From assembly GCF_000013665.1 (NCBI RefSeq), contig NC_007912.1, positions 1,598,501-1,662,500 on the forward strand: a stretch of DNA of 64,000 nucleotides, given 5' to 3'. A program made the translations under genes and the position numbers. The stretch comes from Saccharophagus degradans 2-40 (GTDB lineage Bacteria > Pseudomonadota > Gammaproteobacteria > Pseudomonadales > Cellvibrionaceae). The notes under the pieces were generated by a model, which was not told the origin of the DNA, ran no database searches, and was given only the letters and a program-made list of their open reading frames with translations. Numbering within the stretch: the stretch's first letter is position 1; every line of letters begins with the position of its first letter. This document shows, piece after piece, positions 53,483-64,000 of this stretch.

Positions 53483-53607
53483 TTTTTGTCGTATTCTTTC
53501 CTCAGTCGCAACCAATTGGGTTGCAGCGCAATGCGCAAAACGGGGTTTAAGGGTAGGTGAGACGGGATGTTTTCAGCTGCCAAGATTATATTTTAAAGGG
53601 GTTAGTT

Positions 53608-54654
53608 ATGGATGCCAGTAAATCAAAAGCGTTAGAAGCTGCACTTTCTCAAATTGATCGCCAGTTCGGTAAGGGCACGGTTATGCGCCTTGGCGATAAA
53701 GGCAGAGAAAAAATGCCTGCTATTTCAACCGGTTCACTCGGTTTAGATGTGGCCTTAGGTATAGGTGGCTTGCCCAAAGGACGTATTGTTGAGATTTACG
53801 GCCCTGAATCTTCAGGTAAAACCACGCTAACCCTTCAAGTTATTGCAGAAGCGCAGCGCCAAGGTGGCACTTGTGCTTTCGTTGATGCCGAGCATGCACT
53901 AGACCCTGTATACGCCGAAAAGCTTGGTGTAAATGTAGACGACCTAATTATTTCTCAGCCAGATAACGGTGAACAGGCCTTAGAAGTTGCCGATATGTTG
54001 GTTCGTTCTGGCGCTGTAGATGTGCTTGTTGTCGACTCCGTGGCGGCGCTTACTCCCAAGGCCGAAATCGAAGGCGATATGGGCGACCACCACGTTGGTT
54101 TGCAAGCGCGATTAATGTCGCAAGCACTGCGAAAAATTACGGGCAACATTAAAAACGCTAACTGTTTAGCAATTTTTATTAACCAAATTCGTATGAAGAT
54201 TGGTGTGATGTTCGGCAACCCAGAAACCACTACCGGTGGTAACGCGCTGAAGTTCTACTCTTCGGTTCGTTTAGATATCCGTCGCATTGGCTCAGTTAAA
54301 GAGGGCGATGAGGTTGTTGGCTCGGATACGCGCGTTAAAGTTGTTAAAAATAAAGTTGCGCCACCCTTTAAGCAAGCCGAGTTTCAAATTTTGTATGGTC
54401 AGGGCATAAACCGCTTGGGCGAGATTGTAGACTTTGGTGTTAAGCTTGGTTTAATTGATAAAGCTGGTGCTTGGTATAGCTATAACGGCGATAAAATTGG
54501 CCAGGGTAAAGCAAATGCTATGCAATACCTTCGCGATAACAAAGAAGTTGCCGAGTTCTTAGAGCAAAAAATAAAGGCGGAATTACTGGGCGATATTAAG
54601 CCTGTAGCTAAAGAAGGCGCTGAAGTTGAAGAAGAGAGCGCAGAGCAGGAGTAA
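53608..54654 (+). CDS. recA: RecA, recombinase and SOS co-protease
   Basis: Forms filaments on single-stranded DNA, drives strand exchange and triggers LexA self-cleavage. ATG 53608 ([23 protein letters not shown]) is chosen because RecA proteins start this way and AAAGGGGTTAGTT precedes it; the longer open frame from 53557 adds residues with no family match. The 348-aa protein has Walker [19 protein letters not shown], Walker [40 protein letters not shown], and [36 protein letters not shown]. The C-terminus is acidic. A LexA box lies upstream. Confidence 0.98.
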
Positions 54655-54696
54655 TTCTGTTCTCGCTATATTAACCTCTTTAGTTTTTCTATTTGT

Positions 54697-55143
54697 ATGG
54701 ATTACCCCTCTGTTAAAAATGCTGCGCTAGGCCTATTGGCCAGGCGCGAGCACAGCGAGTATGAGTTACGCACTAAACTCAAGCAAAAATTCCCCGTTGA
54801 TGAAGAGCTTCTAAATACACTTGTAGGCGAATTGGTTGGCTTAAATTACCTAAGTGATGAGCGCTTTGCTGAAATGTATGTGCGTGTTCGCCAGTCAAAA
54901 GGCTTTGGTCGCGAGCGAGTAATGCGTGATCTACAAGAAAAGGGCATTTCTAGCGAACTTGCGTCTAACTGTATTGAGCAAATCGACACTTGGTTAGAAA
55001 CTGCCACACACGTATGGCAAAAGAAATTTGGTGTGCCGGCAGAAGACTACAAAAGCAGAATGAAACAAATGCAGTTTTTGCGCTATAGAGGCTTTACACA
55101 CCAAGAAGCAGAGCGGGTAGTGGCCGGCTGTACATTTGAATAG
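54697..55143 (+). CDS. recX: RecX, RecA regulator
   Basis: Inhibits RecA filament extension. The 148-aa protein has the three-helix repeats of RecX: ALGLLARREHSEYELRTKLKQKFP, LNYLSDERFAEMYVRVRQSKGFGRERVMRDLQEKGI and the last repeat MKQMQFLRYRGFTHQEAERVV. It lies 42 bases after recA on the same strand, the canonical position, and is probably read through from recA. Confidence 0.93.
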   Translation: MDYPSVKNAALGLLARREHSEYELRTKLKQKFPVDEELLNTLVGELVGLNYLSDERFAEMYVRVRQSKGFGRERVMRDLQEKGISSELASNCIEQIDTWLETATHVWQKKFGVPAEDYKSRMKQMQFLRYRGFTHQEAERVVAGCTFE

Positions 55144-55216
55144 CAATTACGGGGTGCTTACTCCTTTCTAAGCCCAACCTAGTACCTTTCTTATACAGTG
55201 TTTTCAAAAAACACCT

Positions 55217-55552
55217 TCAAATAGTATCCTCATCATCCAAAAACGAAACCTCATTACTAGAGAGCTCAGAGCGCAGCCTTTCTCTTTTTAGCAGCTTCTG
55301 CTGCACTGGCTCTGGCAGCTCTGTAAATAAAATAACCTGTTTGTTCACTAGTAAATAAATTAAGTCCTCCGTAACCCTTGCTATTTCCCTGTCAGAGTTT
55401 TGTAGCTCTTTAAGTACAGCGTCGTCTTCGCCTTTGTTTAAAAAAGCGACTACTTCGTGATTGTCAGCGGGCAAACGCTCCTCATCGCCTGTGCGAGGCG
55501 CATCTAAAAGCTCGGTAATGTTGCCTTGGCTATCTCTTTTTATATAGGGCAT
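55217..55552 (-). CDS. Small conserved hypothetical protein
   Basis: A 111-aa soluble protein: MPYIKRDSQGNITELLDAPRT, NKGEDDAVLKELQNSDREIARVTEDLIYLLVNKQVILFTELPEPVQQKLLKRERLRSEL and an acidic tail. Similar small proteins in pseudomonads are annotated, misleadingly, as tryptophan-synthase beta-like, from memory; the sequence holds no enzyme motif. The helical central part and acidic tail suggest a small binding or regulatory protein. It is convergent with recX, leaving 73 bases between stops. Confidence 0.7.
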   Translation of the reverse strand: MPYIKRDSQGNITELLDAPRTGDEERLPADNHEVVAFLNKGEDDAVLKELQNSDREIARVTEDLIYLLVNKQVILFTELPEPVQQKLLKRERLRSELSSNEVSFLDDEDTI

Positions 55553-55832
55553 ATCAGATACATCTATACTGGTGGTTGGTTGATATAAGAATAGCAGTAT
55601 CTAAACTGTATGTAGGGTTGCGTTTGGGTGGAATTTTGACCAGTGTGACTTGTGTGGTCTCTGGCGACATTAAAATTGAATGTTTATACAGTTTTACATT
55701 TATACTTGGCGGCCTTTGTTACACTGGTTGAAACAAGCGTTTACGCCAAACGGAATTGCCTAACGCGTTAATATATGGCTGTATTTAAAGCTGTGTGAAG
55801 GCAAAATGCACTTTTTACTGTGGGGCTAAAGC

Positions 55833-57968
55833 TTGGATAAAACAGAAGACACTGTCGGTTCAAAAGACCCTCTTTTACTGTCGTTGATGGCTATTGCTCG
55901 CTATGAGCACGTCGCTTGTTCAGACACCATGCTTGTGTCTGGGTTGCCATTGCATGAAGGCCGTCTTACGCCAGAGTTGCTAGTTCGCGCTGCAAGTCGC
56001 ATAGATATGAAAGCATCGGTGGTTGAACGCACTATCGATCAAATATCCAACTTGGTATTGCCCGCCATACTTATTCTTAAAGACAACCAAGCATTGGTGT
56101 TGTTAGATATTGCAGATAACAACTCTGTCGCACAGGTATATTGCCCCGAGCAGGATGCTGAACAAGAAATATCCATTCCCGACTTACTCCAGCAATACAC
56201 AGGCTTAGCCATATATATAAAGCCCGAAACCCATTACGAAGCCCGCGCTCTTCACGATATAGCACCTAAGAAAGCACACTGGTTTTGGGGGACGCTAAGC
56301 CATAGCTGGCGAATTTACCGCGATGTATTGGTGGCTTCATTTCTAATTAACCTCTTTGCGCTTGCGAACCCGCTGTTTGTAATGAATGTGTACGATCGGG
56401 TGGTACCCAATAATGCAATCGAGACGTTGTGGGTGCTAGCACTTGGTGTATCAGTTGTTTACATTTTTGATTACATCTTAAAAACGTTACGGGTGCATTT
56501 TATAGAGGTGGCGGGTAAAAAGTCGGATGTACTGCTGTCAGCGTATATTTTTGAGCGAGTGCTTGGCGCGAAGTATGATCAGCATCCTCCTTCTGTAGGG
56601 GCTTTTACTGGGCAGCTGCGCGATTTTGATTCTGTAAGAAACTTTATTACTGCAACGTCGGTTACCGCGTTTGTCGACTTGCCCTTTACCGTGCTCTTTT
56701 TGGTGGTTATCGGCTATTTGGGCGGCCCAATCGTATGGATTCCCATAGTAATTATTCCACTTATTATTATTTTTTCCTTGGTCGTGCAGGCCATGCTCAA
56801 TAAAGCGGTTGCCAACACCTTTGTCGCATCCGCCCAAAAAAATGCCACTATGGTGGAAGCTATTACTAATTTGTCGTTGGTTAAGGTGTTGAACGCCGAG
56901 GGCAAAATACTGCGCAACCTAGAAAAGGCTGTTGGGTTGTTGGCTTATTGGGGTGTTAAAACCCGCGTGCTTTCTAATAGCGCGACTGGCTTTGCTGGTT
57001 TTATGCAGCAAATGGCTTCTGTTTTGGTGGTTATTGTTGGTGTGTATTTAATTAGCGCCGGCGAATTAACCATGGGTGGTTTAATTGCATGTGTGTTGCT
57101 AACCACGCGTTCTCTTATGCCTTTAGCGCAGGTAGCTGGCTTATTGGTTCAATTCCAGCAGTCGAAAATGGCGTTAACCTCACTTGAAGAGATTGTAAAT
57201 AGGCAGCAAGAGCGGCCAAACGACAGACACTTTATAAAACGTATTAAATTGCAGGGTAATGTGGAGTTTAAAGGGGTGAACTTTGTTTACCCTGGCGATG
57301 ATCAGCCAACACTCAAAGATGTAAGCTTTTCGTTAAAAGAGGGGGAGAAGGTAGCGTTAATTGGTCGATTGGGGTCTGGTAAATCGACAATGAATAATTT
57401 AATAGCTGGTTTATATCAGCCTACCAGTGGTGCCATTCTTATTGATGGCATAGATATTAAGCAAATAGACCCCGCAGAGCTGCGAGCCAATCTTGGTTAT
57501 GTCCCTCAAGATAGCTCTTTATTCTATGGCTCAATAAAAGACAACATTGCTTATCGCGATGTATACGTTGACGATCAAGAGATCATCCGCGTGGCAGAAG
57601 TGGCTGGTGTATCTGCATTTAGTAATCTTCATCCCCATGGTTTGGCTCGAATGATAGGCGAGCGTGGAGACAATTTATCCGGCGGTCAGAGGCAGGCGAT
57701 ATCTATTGCGCGAGGCTTGGTGAATAGCCCTGCATTGGTGCTTTTAGATGAGCCTACATCTGCAATGGATAATGCGAGTGAAGCCAAGTTAATGGAAAAC
57801 CTTAAAGAAGAGCTGGCCGATAAAACGGTAATAATGGTTACTCATAAAACGTCATTGCTTCGATTGGTAGACAGGGTAATAGTAATGGATAGTGGCCGCA
57901 TAGTTGCCGATGGTCCGAAAGATACCGTGTTAGAAGCACTTAAAAAGGGGCAGGTCCGTGTCAGCTAA
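55833..57968 (+). CDS. Type I secretion ABC transporter (LapB-like)
   Basis: The 711-aa inner-membrane ATPase of a type I secretion system. The first 130 residues form a C39-peptidase-like domain without the catalytic Cys/His (LLSLMAIARYEHVACSDTMLVSGLPL), so it docks rather than cleaves its cargo. Six transmembrane helices follow (about 150-440), then the ATPase with Walker A GRLGSGKST, signature LSGGQRQAISIARGL and Walker B LVLLDEPTSAMD. The apparent start is TTG 55833 after TGTGGGGC; no ATG is close. It overlaps the next gene by 11 bases. LapB-type systems export giant adhesins, which fits the partner gene at 60954. Confidence 0.92.
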   Translation: MDKTEDTVGSKDPLLLSLMAIARYEHVACSDTMLVSGLPLHEGRLTPELLVRAASRIDMKASVVERTIDQISNLVLPAILILKDNQALVLLDIADNNSVAQVYCPEQDAEQEISIPDLLQQYTGLAIYIKPETHYEARALHDIAPKKAHWFWGTLSHSWRIYRDVLVASFLINLFALANPLFVMNVYDRVVPNNAIETLWVLALGVSVVYIFDYILKTLRVHFIEVAGKKSDVLLSAYIFERVLGAKYDQHPPSVGAFTGQLRDFDSVRNFITATSVTAFVDLPFTVLFLVVIGYLGGPIVWIPIVIIPLIIIFSLVVQAMLNKAVANTFVASAQKNATMVEAITNLSLVKVLNAEGKILRNLEKAVGLLAYWGVKTRVLSNSATGFAGFMQQMASVLVVIVGVYLISAGELTMGGLIACVLLTTRSLMPLAQVAGLLVQFQQSKMALTSLEEIVNRQQERPNDRHFIKRIKLQGNVEFKGVNFVYPGDDQPTLKDVSFSLKEGEKVALIGRLGSGKSTMNNLIAGLYQPTSGAILIDGIDIKQIDPAELRANLGYVPQDSSLFYGSIKDNIAYRDVYVDDQEIIRVAEVAGVSAFSNLHPHGLARMIGERGDNLSGGQRQAISIARGLVNSPALVLLDEPTSAMDNASEAKLMENLKEELADKTVIMVTHKTSLLRLVDRVIVMDSGRIVADGPKDTVLEALKKGQVRVS

Positions 57969-59343
57969 AAAAAGACTTGGCTCAGTATTTCAATCCATTG
58001 CCGATATGGCCGCCAATAGCGTGGACTCTCCTCTGCCGCCAGCCGATTTAGATTACATTACATCTGCTAGAGCTGCGGTTTTAGAGCAGAGTCCAAAGGG
58101 CGGGCGTTACGTACTGTGGGCGGTGGTTGTGTTTTTTGTTGTTACTGTGCTCTGGGCCAGTTGGGCGGAGCTAGATGAGTTTGCGCGCGGTGAAGGGAAA
58201 GTTATTCCATCTCAGTATGTTCAGGTTGTACAAAACTTGGAAGGCGGAATTCTTGCAGAGCTTTATGTGCGTGAAGGGGAGCGGGTCGCGCGAGGTGAAA
58301 AATTATTGCGCATTGACGACACGCAGTTTGCTTCTAGCTTGCGTGAGGCGGGTGTAACGCTGGCGCAATGGGAGCTTAAATCTATGCGCTTGCGGGCGGA
58401 ATCTAACGGTGAAGCATTTAAACCCGAGATAAAAAAAGGCTGGCCGCAATTTCTTGTGGATCAAGAGCTAGCGTATTACCAATCGCGTCAACAAGAGTTG
58501 GCAGGTAATAAAGAAATCTACGATCAGCAACTTACTCAGCGCAAACAGGAGTTAGCCGAGCTAGAGGCAAGAAAAGAACAGTTACAGCGCAGTTACAATT
58601 TGCTGAATCAAGAGTTGCAAATGACTCGGCCGCTAGTTAGTCAAGGGGCTATTTCCGAAGTGGAATTATTGCGATTAGAGCGACAAGTGAACGATTTACT
58701 TGGCGAGCTAGAGGCGGCACAGCTTGCTATTCCTAGGGTTAAGTCAAGCCTAGATGAAGCGAAAGAAAAGCTGGCGAGTGTGGATATTGTATTTAGACGA
58801 GAGGCCCAAGAGGAGCTTAATAAAGTCACTCTCGAATTGTCTCGCTTACAAGAAACGTCGGAAGCGTTAGTCGATAGGGTAAAGCGTACAATGGTGATAT
58901 CGCCTGTAGCAGGTACGGTCAAGCAATTGCTTGTCAAAACGATAGGCGGAGTGATCCAGCCTGGCATGGATATCGTAGAAATTGTACCCAGCGAAGAAAT
59001 AATGTTGGTTGAGGCAAGGGTTCGACCAGCAGATATTGGCTATTTGCACCCAGGGCAAAAAGCCAAAGTGAAGTTTTCTGCTTATGATTTTTCCGTAATG
59101 GGGGGGCTAGATGGAGAGGTTGTCCATATCAGCCCAGACACCATTCAAGACGAAGATGGCGATAGTTTTTATCTCGTACGTATCGAAACCAGCAGAACAT
59201 TCATTGGCCCAGACGGTAGAGAGCTACCAATTATCCCTGGAATGACGGTAAGTGTTGATATTTTGACCGGTAAAAAGACAATTTTAGATTACCTGTTAAA
59301 GCCCATCTTAAAAACTAAGCAGCTTGCAATGAGTGAACGATAG
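57958..59343 (+). CDS. Type I secretion membrane-fusion protein (HlyD/LapC-like)
   Basis: A 461-aa adaptor that bridges the ABC transporter and the outer-membrane channel. One transmembrane helix (YVLWAVVVFFVVTVLWASW) is followed by a biotinyl-lipoyl-like half-motif (NLEGGILAELYVREGERVARGEKLLRIDDTQF), a long coiled coil (about 180-320) and the second lipoyl half (RTMVISPVAGTVKQLLVKTIGGVIQPGMDIVEIVP). The start GTG 57958 lies inside the end of the ABC gene, so translation is coupled. The final LDYLLKPILK motif is typical of the family. Confidence 0.93.
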   Translation: MSAKKRLGSVFQSIADMAANSVDSPLPPADLDYITSARAAVLEQSPKGGRYVLWAVVVFFVVTVLWASWAELDEFARGEGKVIPSQYVQVVQNLEGGILAELYVREGERVARGEKLLRIDDTQFASSLREAGVTLAQWELKSMRLRAESNGEAFKPEIKKGWPQFLVDQELAYYQSRQQELAGNKEIYDQQLTQRKQELAELEARKEQLQRSYNLLNQELQMTRPLVSQGAISEVELLRLERQVNDLLGELEAAQLAIPRVKSSLDEAKEKLASVDIVFRREAQEELNKVTLELSRLQETSEALVDRVKRTMVISPVAGTVKQLLVKTIGGVIQPGMDIVEIVPSEEIMLVEARVRPADIGYLHPGQKAKVKFSAYDFSVMGGLDGEVVHISPDTIQDEDGDSFYLVRIETSRTFIGPDGRELPIIPGMTVSVDILTGKKTILDYLLKPILKTKQLAMSER

Positions 59344-59459
59344 TGTGGGCTTGGTTTCCTCTATTTTGGTACTTAAGTGCTAACAGGTTCTCTTTTCTGC
59401 TATAGTTTGCGCAGATAGATGATAAAGTTGGCGCGTATAGTAACTTTTGTGTGGTAGTT

Positions 59460-59495
59460 AAGCGTTTTTTGCCTCTTAAAGGTATAAAAACGCTT
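59460..59495 (+). terminator. Possible terminator or leader hairpin after the membrane-fusion gene
   Basis: AAGCGTTTTT (59460-59469) pairs with AAAAACGCTT (59486-59495) around a 16-base loop. It lies 117 bases after the gene and upstream of the CRP-like site, so it may separate the two transcription units. Confidence 0.45.
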
Positions 59496-59568
59496 GGAAT
59501 GCCTTGTTTTTCTTAGATTTATAGCAAAAGTGTTGCTATAGGCAAGGGTTAGTATAAAATTTACGCAT

Positions 59569-59586
59569 ATGTGACGCGCGTCACAT
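59569..59586 (+). promoter_or_regulatory. CRP/Vfr-type palindrome upstream of the TolC-like gene
   Basis: TGTGACGCGCGTCACA (59570-59585) matches the CRP consensus TGTGA-N6-TCACA exactly on both arms; the symmetry extends by one A/T pair to 18 bp. It is centred about 46 bases upstream of ATG 59624. Confidence 0.75.
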
Positions 59587-59623
59587 TGCTGCATCTATCT
59601 TAAATATGGACTGAGTGAAATAA

Positions 59624-60916
59624 ATGAATAAACGCAGTTTGATTGTTGGACTGCTATGGCTTGGCTTGGTATCGGGGGATATCCAAGCGCTTACACTAGA
59701 AGAAGCTGTGGCGTACACATTGGAGTCAAACCCAGAGGTTTTGGCTGCATTGAATGAATATAAGTCGCGTGAGCATGAAGTTACTCAAGCGAAAGCGGGG
59801 TATTTACCCAGAGTTTCTGTGTCTGCCGCTGTGGGGCAAGAGCAACGCAAAGCGCCTGCTACTGGTAATGAGAGTGTTGAGCTAGATAGAAAAGAACTAG
59901 CTATTCAGGCTCGTCAAACAGTGTTTGACGGTTTTGCAACCTCGGCAGAAGTTAAGCGTCAACGGGCACGAGTTGAAGCAGCTGAATTCGAACTGCAAGC
60001 GGTATCTGGTAACACTGCTTTGCGCGCTGCAGAAGTGTATTTGAATGTGTTGCGTCATGCAGAACTGTTGGATTTGGCAAGAGACTCCCTTTGGGAGCAC
60101 CAAAATATTTATGACCAAATGAAGCTGCGCAGTGAGACAGGTGTTGGTAGTAAGGCGGATCTTGATCAAATTGCTGCGCGGTTGGCGTTAGCTAATGCAA
60201 ATATGATAGTTGCTCAAAACAATTTTGCGGATGCGCAGAGTAATTATCAGCGTGTTATAGGCTTGTTTCCAAATTTGGAAAACATGAGTAAGCCAGCTGC
60301 TACTGAAGATTTGTTGCGCACGCGAGAAAAGGCTGTGCAGCAGGCGCTTGAGAATCATCCGACGTTAAAAGCGGCGATTGCGGATGTTACCGCTGCGCAG
60401 GCTCAATATAAGGGGGCGAGTAGTGCACTGTGGCCGCGCCTAGAATTGGAAGCCGACAAGCGTTGGGATGAAAACGTAGGTGGTATAGAAGGCGAAGATG
60501 AGGATTTTGTTGTATCGCTTCGGCTTAGTTACGATTTATTTGCTGGCGGCGCTAATCGTGCCCGTAAAAAGCAAACTGCTGTTTTGATTTCTGAAGCGAA
60601 AGATATTCGCAATAATTCAAGGCGACAGGTAATCGAAAGTATGGAGCTTTCGTGGAATGCGTATGACGCGCTTAAAGCGCAGAAAGTGTTTTTAGAACAG
60701 CACGTAGAAGCTGCTAAAGCGACAAAAACGGCCTATGCCAAGCAGTTTAATATTGGCCGTCGCACATTATTAGATTTACTCAACACCGAGAATGAAGTGG
60801 TCGATTCGAAACGAGCACTTATTAACGCCGACTATGATCAGTTGCATGCGGTATATCGTATTTACAATGCATCTGGCTCTATGTTGGCAGCTCTTGGTAT
60901 AGCGTTAGACAGTTAA
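59624..60916 (+). CDS. TolC-family outer-membrane channel of a type I secretion system (LapE-like)
   Basis: A 430-aa exported protein (signal peptide about 1-22, ending DIQA) with two outer-membrane-efflux repeats: LTLEEAVAYTLESNPEVLAALNEYKSREHEVTQAKAGYLPRVSVSAAVGQEQR and DLLRTREKAVQQALENHPTLKAAIADVTAAQAQYKGASSALWPRLELEADKRW. Residues such as YDLFAGGANRARKKQTA are typical of AggA/TolC proteins of secretion operons. It lies 37 bases before the giant adhesin gene, so the two share a transcript and probably a CRP-type control site. Confidence 0.93.
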   Translation: MNKRSLIVGLLWLGLVSGDIQALTLEEAVAYTLESNPEVLAALNEYKSREHEVTQAKAGYLPRVSVSAAVGQEQRKAPATGNESVELDRKELAIQARQTVFDGFATSAEVKRQRARVEAAEFELQAVSGNTALRAAEVYLNVLRHAELLDLARDSLWEHQNIYDQMKLRSETGVGSKADLDQIAARLALANANMIVAQNNFADAQSNYQRVIGLFPNLENMSKPAATEDLLRTREKAVQQALENHPTLKAAIADVTAAQAQYKGASSALWPRLELEADKRWDENVGGIEGEDEDFVVSLRLSYDLFAGGANRARKKQTAVLISEAKDIRNNSRRQVIESMELSWNAYDALKAQKVFLEQHVEAAKATKTAYAKQFNIGRRTLLDLLNTENEVVDSKRALINADYDQLHAVYRIYNASGSMLAALGIALDS

Positions 60917-60953: not shown

Positions 60954-63900
60954 ATGGCTGAGCAGTCGCCCGAAAATAATTCTTCTTCTGAAAATTCAGG
61001 GAAGGTTTTGGGGAAAATTGTTGGCGTTCAGGGGGAGGTGTACGTTGACTCTCCAAACGGTAAAGCGGCTGCAGGGAAGGCACAGTTAGCATTAAATCAT
61101 GGTGATACCGTTCGCACGCTTGGTAGCAGTGCGGTGGTTATTCAGTTGGAGGGCGGCAAGTCCTTAACTCTTGGCCATGATGAAACGCTAACCCTCGACG
61201 ATAAATTACTGGCGCTGCTTAACCAAAAGGAAGAAGAGGGCTCGCTTGATGAAGGTGTTGACTTCGATGCTCTTGCTGAAGCGATTGAGTCTGGCCAAAA
61301 TCTAGAAGAAATTTTACCGGCCGCAGCTGCGGGCGGGGATGACCCTGGCACAAACTCCGCGGGTACCGCTGGTAGTTCCGGTGTGCGAATGGATCGTACG
61401 GGTGATTCTGTTACGCCAGACAGCGGGTTTAATACCAGTAATGGGTCTCGCTCAACCTCTAGTAATGAGGTTAGAAGTGGTGATAATGTTGACGACGCCT
61501 TTTTGGCGGAGGCTAACAACAATCAGCCTGAAGCAGGTGTAATAGAAAACACCACATTCAATGAAGATGAATTTTCTCAGTTAGATGTTTCAACAGCATT
61601 TAATGATTCAGACCCAGAGCAAACGCTCACCTACACAGCTGAAGGCTTGCCCGAAGGCTTAGAACTAGACCCTCTAACCGGTATTATTTCTGGCACACCA
61701 ACTAATGCTGCAGCTTTATTAAATGGCGGTACATACACGGTTGTTGTAACTGCTACAGATGATTCTGGTGCATCTAATAACTCAGCATCTACTTCGTTTA
61801 CTTTGCAAATAGCCAACGTTAACGACGCCCCAGAAGTTGAGTCTGCGCCGCAGTTGAGCGATGCCGTTGAAGATGAACCTTATATTATTTCTAACGAAGA
61901 GTTGTTGGCAGGTGCTAGCGACATTGATCAAGATGAACTCACTGTAACCAATGTGAGCCTTGTAACGGGTCAAGGCGAAATAATCGCTAATGATGATGGC
62001 ACGTTTACATTTAACCCTGCCCCAAATTATAACGGCCCAGTTGAATTTTCTTACACCATAAGCGATGGGCAAGGCGGTGAGATTCAAAACACTGCCACCT
62101 TGATTGTTACCCCTGTAAACGACGCGCCGACCGCTGTTGGCGATGGGGTTGTTTCTACTGATGCAAATGTTCCTGTAACCGTGAACGTGCTTGCTAATGA
62201 TTTTGACGTGGACGGCGATGAGATTTCGATAGTAAGTGCAGAAGCTAATCAAGGCACCGTGACAGTTAATGCCGACGGCACGCTTACTTATACTCCGAAT
62301 GAGGACTTTGTAGGGCGTGATGTGCTCTCTTACACCATCACTGATGGAAATGGTAATACATCCACTTCCTTTGCATTGGTGAATATTGTTGTTGGTAACA
62401 ACGCGCCTCAGCTAGGCGATGATGCAACTGTAAACGTTAATGAAAACGAAACGGCTGTAGGTAATTTTGCTGCTACAGATGCTGATGGCGACACTATTAC
62501 TTACTCGCTCGAAGGGGCTGATGCCAATTTATTCACAATTGATGCATTGGGGAATTTGAGTTTTGTTACTGCGCCAGATTTTGAAACAAATGCAGGCCCT
62601 TTTAATGTTGTAGTAACGGCTACAGATAATGGCTTAGGCAATTTATCAGATAGTCAGTCTATTACTATTAACGTATTAGACGTTAACGAAAATAATGACC
62701 CTAATATTGCACCAGTGGTAGAAGCTGCGCTTACCGTTGATGGTAACGAGGATGATGCACCACTAGTTTTAGATTTGTTGCAAGGCGCAACCGATGCGGA
62801 AGGCGATACATTAAGTGTTTCTGGTGTCGTTTTAGAAGGCGGTAATGCGGTAGGCGTAACGCAGGTTGGAAACAACTTTGAGATAAACCCTGATGCTTAT
62901 AACCATTTAGCTAATGGTGAAACTGAAACAATCGCGTACCGATATACCATATCTGACGGCAATGGGGGAAGCGTAGAGCAAACCGCCACCATTATTATCT
63001 CTGGTACAAATGACGCCCCGCAAGTTTCAGCTAGTTTATTGTCTGTTGCAGTCGACACAGACTCTGCCTTTAATTTGAATTTGTTAGTTGGTGCAACAGA
63101 TGCAGAATCTGATGTGCTAACGGTTTCTAATTTTACACTTGTTTCTGGTGACGACTCCGGAATTGTTTTAAACGGTAACCAGCTTAGTGTTAATCCTCAA
63201 GCTTACGCACACTTACAAAACGCCGAGCAAGAAAACGTCGTCTTTAATTATGTTATCGACGATGGTAATGGCGGCACAATAAATCAGGCAGCCACCATTA
63301 CCATTACCGGAACCAACAATACACCTGAGGTCACTTCTGCTATTGTTGCTAACGCGAACGAAGATGATGCACTACTTAGCCTCGACTTGTTGGCCGGCGC
63401 GAGCGATGTGGAAGGTGATGCGCTCAATGTTAATAACTTAACGTTAGTGAGTGGTGATGCCTCGGGCATAACGGTTTCTGGTAATTCATTAAACATCGAT
63501 CCAAATGCCTACAACGCTTTGGCCGCTGGCGAAAGCGAAGTCATTACCTACAGCTACGATGTTGAAGATGGTAATGGCGGCAGCGTTGCACAAACGGCAA
63601 CGATCACCATTACCGGTTCCAACGATGCGCCAACAGTAAGCAGCGCAGTAACAAGTTCTGCAAGTGAAGACGATGCGGCTTACTCGTTAGATTTATTAAC
63701 AAATGCAGGCGATGCCGATAGTAGTGATACGCTCAACGTTAATAACCTAACCCTAGTAAGTGGTGATGCATCTGGCGTAACGGTTTCTGGCAATGCATTA
63801 AGCATCGATCCAAATGCTTACAACGCTTTAGCCGTTGGCGAAAGCGAAGTCATTACCTACAGCTACGATGTTGAAGATGGTAATGGCGGCAGTGTTGCAC

Positions 63901-64000
63901 AAACCGCAACGATCACCATTACTGGCTCAAACGATGCGCCAACCGTTTCTTCTGCGGTTACAAGTTCTGCAAGTGAAGACGATGCGGCTTACTCGCTAAA
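60954..64000 (+). CDS. Giant LapA-like adhesin with retention module and cadherin-like repeats (partial, 3' end outside window)
   Basis: The frame opens at ATG 60954 (GAGGTAGTACT before it) and stays open to the window edge, 1015 codons. Residues 15-100 fit the LapA-type retention module (GKVLGKIVGVQGEVYVDSPNG, LNHGDTVRTLGSSAVVIQLEGGKSLTLGHDETLTLD). A Pro-Ala-Ala-Ala-Ala-Gly stretch (122-127) matches the Ala-Ala site cut by the periplasmic protease LapG. Then come a He_PIG-type domain (about 198-295), cadherin-like domains with Asn-Asp-Ala-Pro linkers, and from about 62700 a ladder of 102-103-residue repeats. With the secretion genes upstream it should be exported and held at the outer membrane; LapD/LapG are not in the window. 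Confidence 0.85.
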   Translation, partial: MAEQSPENNSSSENSGKVLGKIVGVQGEVYVDSPNGKAAAGKAQLALNHGDTVRTLGSSAVVIQLEGGKSLTLGHDETLTLDDKLLALLNQKEEEGSLDEGVDFDALAEAIESGQNLEEILPAAAAGGDDPGTNSAGTAGSSGVRMDRTGDSVTPDSGFNTSNGSRSTSSNEVRSGDNVDDAFLAEANNNQPEAGVIENTTFNEDEFSQLDVSTAFNDSDPEQTLTYTAEGLPEGLELDPLTGIISGTPTNAAALLNGGTYTVVVTATDDSGASNNSASTSFTLQIANVNDAPEVESAPQLSDAVEDEPYIISNEELLAGASDIDQDELTVTNVSLVTGQGEIIANDDGTFTFNPAPNYNGPVEFSYTISDGQGGEIQNTATLIVTPVNDAPTAVGDGVVSTDANVPVTVNVLANDFDVDGDEISIVSAEANQGTVTVNADGTLTYTPNEDFVGRDVLSYTITDGNGNTSTSFALVNIVVGNNAPQLGDDATVNVNENETAVGNFAATDADGDTITYSLEGADANLFTIDALGNLSFVTAPDFETNAGPFNVVVTATDNGLGNLSDSQSITINVLDVNENNDPNIAPVVEAALTVDGNEDDAPLVLDLLQGATDAEGDTLSVSGVVLEGGNAVGVTQVGNNFEINPDAYNHLANGETETIAYRYTISDGNGGSVEQTATIIISGTNDAPQVSASLLSVAVDTDSAFNLNLLVGATDAESDVLTVSNFTLVSGDDSGIVLNGNQLSVNPQAYAHLQNAEQENVVFNYVIDDGNGGTINQAATITITGTNNTPEVTSAIVANANEDDALLSLDLLAGASDVEGDALNVNNLTLVSGDASGITVSGNSLNIDPNAYNALAAGESEVITYSYDVEDGNGGSVAQTATITITGSNDAPTVSSAVTSSASEDDAAYSLDLLTNAGDADSSDTLNVNNLTLVSGDASGVTVSGNALSIDPNAYNALAVGESEVITYSYDVEDGNGGSVAQTATITITGSNDAPTVSSAVTSSASEDDAAYSL
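63003..64000 (+). repeat. Tandem repeats of 306-309 bp in the adhesin gene
   Basis: Successive units start at the G(S/T)N(D/N) linker at 63003, 63309, 63615 and 63924, giving periods of 306, 306 and 309 bp. The last two units are highly similar at the DNA level; one codon in the 63615 unit accounts for the longer period. The pattern continues past the window edge. Confidence 0.9.

What the first reader, a model, noticed from the sequence alone, without database searches (positions are those of the whole stretch)
60954..64000. Giant adhesin with a LapA-type retention module and LapG-like site, beside its own secretion genes
Residues 15-100 match the retention-module pattern, and Pro-Ala4-Gly at 122-127 is a good LapG site. 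This predicts a surface adhesin held in the outer membrane and released when a c-di-GMP-controlled protease acts, with ABC, membrane-fusion and TolC genes next door. In Saccharophagus-like genomes giant cadherin-like proteins are known, but as far as I know this link to a Lap-type release system has not been stressed.
Basis: partly seen in the sequence, partly recalled or inferred. Interest (0 to 1): 0.6.

Follow-up and report, generated by a model that had tools for sequence, protein, structure and literature searches.

The report
LapA-type giant adhesin in Saccharophagus
This is the start of an 8,321-residue surface adhesin that should be held in the outer membrane by a plug domain and cut loose by the LapG protease when c-di-GMP falls; it is a well-supported new member of a known kind, whose protease and receptor genes lie far away in the genome.

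Summary
The ORF at 60954 runs 25 kb to genome position 1,684,419 (8,321 aa, 829 kDa). It has a retention module (NF033682, 70 bits; its fold matches the Marinomonas anchor 5IX9), a helix, then LPAAAAG at 121-127. About 66 near-identical 103-aa repeats follow, then PA14, RTX and a T1SS signal. ABC, HlyD and TolC genes precede it. The genome holds exactly one of each: retention module, T1SS target domain, LapB-type ABC, LapG and LapD. Across relatives, retention modules and LapG co-occur (58/59 in the family, 87/89 in the order), and [TPA]AAG stands at the expected place in all but one of the family adhesins examined. The exception, Aestuariicella hydrocarbonica, keeps the syntenic locus but lacks LapG and LapD and has PASRPG there, a natural control. 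Cleavage and surface release were not tested and remain inferred. Verdict: new member of a known kind. Mildly new: the unlinked, gltA-linked LapG lineage, the match between site context and LapG clade, and the Aestuariicella loss.

The parts
60954..64000 (+). First 1,015 aa of the 8,321-aa adhesin gene (continues beyond the window to genome position 1,684,419)
61005..61202 (+). Retention (outer-membrane anchor) beta domain, residues about 18-83
   Evidence: NF033682 70.4 bits; AF2 model, best Foldseek hit 5IX9 E 1.6e-5, rmsd 1.3 over 68 columns; phmmer 5IX9 E 7.6e-6
61263..61316 (+). Predicted targeting helix before the site (residues 104-121)
   Evidence: Aligned in relatives; helix 104-113 only at low pLDDT; role by analogy (PMC13090378)
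61317..61334 (+). LapG-type site PAAAAG (residues 122-127), expected cut between A125 and A126
   Evidence: position conserved in 70 of 71 family retention-module N-termini checked
61542..61811 (+). He_PIG Ig-like domain (residues 197-286)
61818..64000 (+). Cadherin_5/Big_9-type domains and the start of an array of about 66 near-identical 103-aa repeats
55833..57968 (+). T1SS ABC transporter, LssB/LapB subfamily with C39-like N-terminal domain
   Evidence: TIGR03375 986 bits, the only one over cutoff in the genome
57958..59343 (+). HlyD-type membrane fusion protein (LapC equivalent), overlaps the ABC gene by 11 bp
   Evidence: TIGR01843 415 bits
59624..60916 (+). TolC-type outer-membrane channel (LapE equivalent), ends 37 bp before the adhesin
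   Evidence: TIGR01844 311 bits

Best explanation
The gene encodes a LapA-type RTX adhesin. The ABC-HlyD-TolC operon upstream exports it C-terminus first. The N-terminal retention domain stays in the periplasm and lodges the protein in its TolC channel, so the repeat rod and C-terminal PA14 domain are displayed outside. When c-di-GMP is low, LapD lets go of LapG, LapG cuts between A125 and A126, and the adhesin is released. Shown here: the protein architecture, single lapG and lapD genes with key residues, co-occurrence of the parts, and evolutionary coupling of the site to LapG. Inferred from the P. fluorescens and V. cholerae systems: retention, cleavage, c-di-GMP control and release.
For: Retention module by profile, by sequence to 5IX9 and by predicted fold. 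C-terminal PA14, RTX and T1SS_VCA0849 domains. One copy each of retention module, T1SS target, LapB-type ABC, LapG and LapD in the genome. LapG has C125/H160/D177 in GGDCED, AHMV and LDN contexts and matches Legionella LapG 4FGO at E 1.8e-48. LapD has the LapD periplasmic domain, W126 aligned with the tryptophan of the Legionella LapD output domain 4U64, and degenerate GGDEF (TGCDF) and EAL (EVL) motifs. Retention module and LapG: 58 of 59 family genomes, 87 of 89 order genomes. Family adhesins keep [TPA]AAG after the helix, except Aestuariicella (PASRPG), whose genome lacks LapG and LapD.
Against: lapG and lapD are about 1.0 and 0.6 Mb from the adhesin, unlike classic Lap loci. Both score below NCBI's LapG and LapD equivalog cutoffs (209 of 320 bits and 444 of 1020 bits). 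The AF2 model is confident only for the beta domain. No cleavage or localisation data. The co-occurrence counts are not corrected for phylogeny. G242 has a site but no LapG found, and G125 and G337 have LapG but no site.
Confidence: 0.9

Rival explanations
1. The adhesin is anchored by the retention domain, but LapG does not cut it in this species; the orphan LapG acts on other substrates and the anchoring is permanent.
For: lapG and lapD are unlinked to the adhesin; P. aeruginosa LapG acts on CdrA, an adhesin secreted by another route (PMC4694147; PMC13090378).
Against: The site is conserved in family adhesins and lost in the LapG-less Aestuariicella; this is the only retention-module protein in the genome; the same unlinked arrangement with gltA-linked LapG recurs across genera.
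Confidence: 0.06
2. It is an ordinary fully secreted, matrix-type giant repeat protein, like the other S. degradans megaproteins, and the retention module is decayed.
For: S. degradans has many secreted megaproteins (PMC2386152).
Against: The N-terminal module scores over the curated cutoff, folds like 5IX9 and its site is intact.
Confidence: 0.03

Closest known systems
LapA/LapBCE/LapD/LapG of Pseudomonas fluorescens Pf0-1
   Same: Retention domain, helix, [T/A/P]AAG site, repeat rod, RTX, T1SS signal; LapB-type ABC, HlyD and TolC genes; LapD and LapG present
   Different: lapD and lapG are far from the adhesin and from each other; LapG lies beside gltA; site context is LPAAAAG rather than a DP-type TAAG; repeats are cadherin-like
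MpAFP (MpIBP) RTX adhesin of Marinomonas primoryensis
   Same: Anchor domain fold (5IX9), long near-identical repeats, RTX/T1SS C-terminus; PA14 in both (for MpAFP from memory)
   Different: No sign of an ice-binding domain among the domain hits; repeat family differs (103-aa Cadherin_5/Big_9-like)
FrhA/CraA with V. cholerae LapG/LapD
   Same: Retention module, di-alanine site, LapG protease; CraA is VCA0849, the namesake of the T1SS_VCA0849 C-terminal domain
   Different: Only one such adhesin in this genome
S. degradans cadherin megaproteins (CabC, CabD)
   Same: Giant, acidic, cadherin-like repeats, same organism (inferred)
   Different: No other retention module was found in the genome, so those lack this anchor unless one of them is this very gene; locus names could not be matched

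Membership tests
LapA-type (retention-module) RTX adhesin | N-terminal retention module | tested here: met
   NF033682 70.4 bits; 5IX9 by phmmer and Foldseek
LapA-type (retention-module) RTX adhesin | [T/A/P]AAG di-alanine site just after the retention module and helix | tested here: met
   AAAG at 124-127; same alignment column as in relatives
LapA-type (retention-module) RTX adhesin | RTX repeats and C-terminal T1SS signal | tested here: met
   HemolysinCabind and TIGR03661 77 bits
LapA-type (retention-module) RTX adhesin | Cognate LapB-type ABC, MFP and TolC-type channel | tested here: met
   operon order conserved in relatives
LapA-type (retention-module) RTX adhesin | Cleavage by LapG at the di-alanine | not testable with these tools
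   needs protein biochemistry
LapG (BTLCP protease) | BTLCP family with C-H-D triad and adjacent acidic residues (calcium ligands, from memory) | tested here: met
   PF06035 49 bits; C125/H160/D177; GDCED
LapG (BTLCP protease) | NCBI equivalog cutoff (NF045674, 320 bits) | tested here: not met
   208.9 bits; strict equivalog status is not claimed
LapD receptor | LapD_MoxY_N periplasmic domain, HAMP, degenerate GGDEF and EAL | tested here: met
   PF16448 151 bits; TGCDF and EVL motifs; the HAMP hit is just under cutoff (23.5 of 25)
LapD receptor | NCBI equivalog cutoff (NF045673, 1020 bits) | tested here: not met
   443.6 bits over full length
Classic Lap locus | lapD and lapG in one operon | tested here: not met
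   lapG at about 2,699,039, lapD at about 1,062,863, adhesin at 1,659,454

The most novel reading that the evidence does not exclude
Cellvibrionaceae carry two ancient Lap circuits. In one, lapG and lapD form an operon and the adhesin site reads mostly LEETAAG. In the other, which S. degradans has, lapG sits alone, often beside gltA, lapD is elsewhere, the adhesin operon often sits beside recA-recX, and the site mostly reads LPxxAAG. The two LapG lineages would have matched, different docking preferences for their adhesins.
Probability: 0.35. Interest if true: 0.45.

Novelty: new member of a known kind. Interest (0 to 1): 0.33.

Why it matters
It gives a well-known marine polysaccharide degrader a concrete, testable switch for staying on or leaving a surface. 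It also shows that Lap circuits can be missed when lapD and lapG are sought next to the adhesin. The Aestuariicella locus, which lacks LapG, LapD and the site together, is a natural control for the function of the site.

Tried and rejected
The key papers Smith 2018 and Fraiberg 2010 are not held. The search for related loci with the wide alignment had no conserved stretch; a narrower alignment worked. I considered a false positive from low-complexity alanine: rejected, because the motif occurs only twice in 8,321 aa and its position is conserved. I considered that the T1SS might serve another substrate: rejected, because this is the only T1SS_VCA0849 protein in the genome. Weak NF033682 hits elsewhere in the genome (13.2 and 11.9 bits) are chance. 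A simple split of site by LapG presence is not perfect: G125, G337 and G242 are exceptions. Promoter and terminator scans of the operon gave no more than chance.

Full report
Identity. The window lies at 1,598,501-1,662,500 of a single 5,057,531-bp contig. That size and the gene content fit Saccharophagus degradans 2-40, whose genome paper reports 5.06 Mb, one apparent HlyB-HlyD-TolC operon and many megaproteins (PMC2386152). The species name is my inference; the tool does not name the genome.

The protein. The ORF at 60954 is the first 1,015 residues of an 8,321-residue protein, 829 kDa, pI 4.05, no cysteine. Order of parts: retention beta domain (about 18-83), helix (about 104-121), LPAAAAG (121-127), He_PIG and cadherin-like domains, about 66 near-identical 103-aa repeats (60 in register average 93% identity), PA14, RTX, and a T1SS_VCA0849 C-terminus. 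The retention module passes NCBI's retention_LapA cutoff. Its predicted fold has one significant match in the PDB, the Marinomonas cell-surface anchoring domain 5IX9.

The site. LapG proteases cut between the alanines of [T/A/P]AAG after a targeting helix (PMC13090378; PMC3032545). Here that is A124-A125-A126-G127, with the cut expected between A125 and A126. The motif [TAP]AA[GV] occurs twice in 8,321 residues, once at this place.

The machinery. ABC (LssB/LapB subfamily, 986 bits), HlyD and TolC genes precede the adhesin in one direction. The genome has one LapG and one LapD, at 2.70 and 1.06 Mb, neither near the adhesin. LapG keeps the C-H-D triad and matches solved LapG structures. LapD has the LapD-type periplasmic domain, W126 in the position of the LapG-anchor tryptophan (W125 in P. 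fluorescens, PMC5231407), and degenerate GGDEF and EAL motifs, so it is predicted to be a receptor and not an enzyme. Both fall below NCBI's equivalog cutoffs, so I claim family membership and not strict equivalog status.

Comparative evidence. In 120 family genomes, 58 of 59 with a retention module also have LapG, and 56 have all three parts. In 292 genomes of the order, 87 of 89 with a retention module have LapG. These counts are not corrected for phylogeny. Of 71 retention-module N-termini in the family, 70 have [TPA]AAG at the expected place. The exception is Aestuariicella hydrocarbonica: it keeps the recA-recX-ABC-HlyD-TolC-adhesin block, reads PASRPG at the site, and no LapG or LapD was found in its genome (98% complete; the genome was matched to the named record by its contig of 69,103 bases). 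In an order-wide sample, 28 of 30 adhesins from LapG-bearing genomes have the site, against 1 of 10 weak or strong module hits from LapG-less genomes (Fisher p 2e-6). Several of those ten are weak hits and one looks like a FecR-type false positive, so this second test is softer.

Arrangement. In a family tree, LapG of S. degradans belongs to a clade of 34 (97/96 support, with one long-branched divergent row also inside) in which the gene often sits beside gltA and not beside lapD; the lapD-linked LapGs lie outside it. All 38 adhesins with an LPxxAAG-type site occur in genomes with this clade, and none of the 15 classified adhesins from genomes typed as having only lapD-linked LapG has it. Six adhesins with another site context also occur with the first clade, so the match is one-sided. 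The adhesin operon sits beside recA-recX in several genera. Earlier work described lapD and lapG in one operon in the bacteria surveyed (PMC3032553), so the unlinked form is a modest variation.

Mechanism and limits. The best reading is the known Lap mechanism: export by T1SS, retention in the TolC channel, release by LapG when c-di-GMP is low (PMC13090378). Architecture, gene content and evolutionary coupling are shown here; retention, cleavage and regulation are inferred. The most informative experiments are in vitro cleavage of residues 1-200 and lapG and lapD deletions.

Noticed in passing
window 53557-60916, L004:15228-17909, L185, L187, L188, L192-L195: The adhesin operon lies between recA-recX and, after two short genes, alaS; the recA-recX side of this position is shared by several Cellvibrionaceae genera.
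   Followed up: partly
L002:9040-9765 and L160, L057, L061 and others: lapG sits next to gltA (sdh genes beyond) in many genera of the family, away from lapD.
   Followed up: yes
L106-L108, L113, L118, L121-L125, L127, L128, L130-L133, L136 (G009, G037, G054, G066): Pseudoteredinibacter-like genomes carry 5-7 retention-module hits each, plus a second, very divergent LapG-like protein (clade C).
   Followed up: partly
L194:9902-10600: Aestuariicella hydrocarbonica adhesin with PASRPG in place of the LapG site; no LapG or LapD found in that genome.
   Followed up: yes
L204-L212 (genomes of family f7): Giant proteins with a retention-like N-terminus but no di-alanine site, some in genomes that have a LapG; possibly a permanently anchored class.
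   Followed up: no
L144 (G074 adhesin N-terminus): The G074 adhesin has an expanded run of helical repeats of about 20 residues (ILASLDANDALL) between the retention domain and its PAAG site.
   Followed up: no
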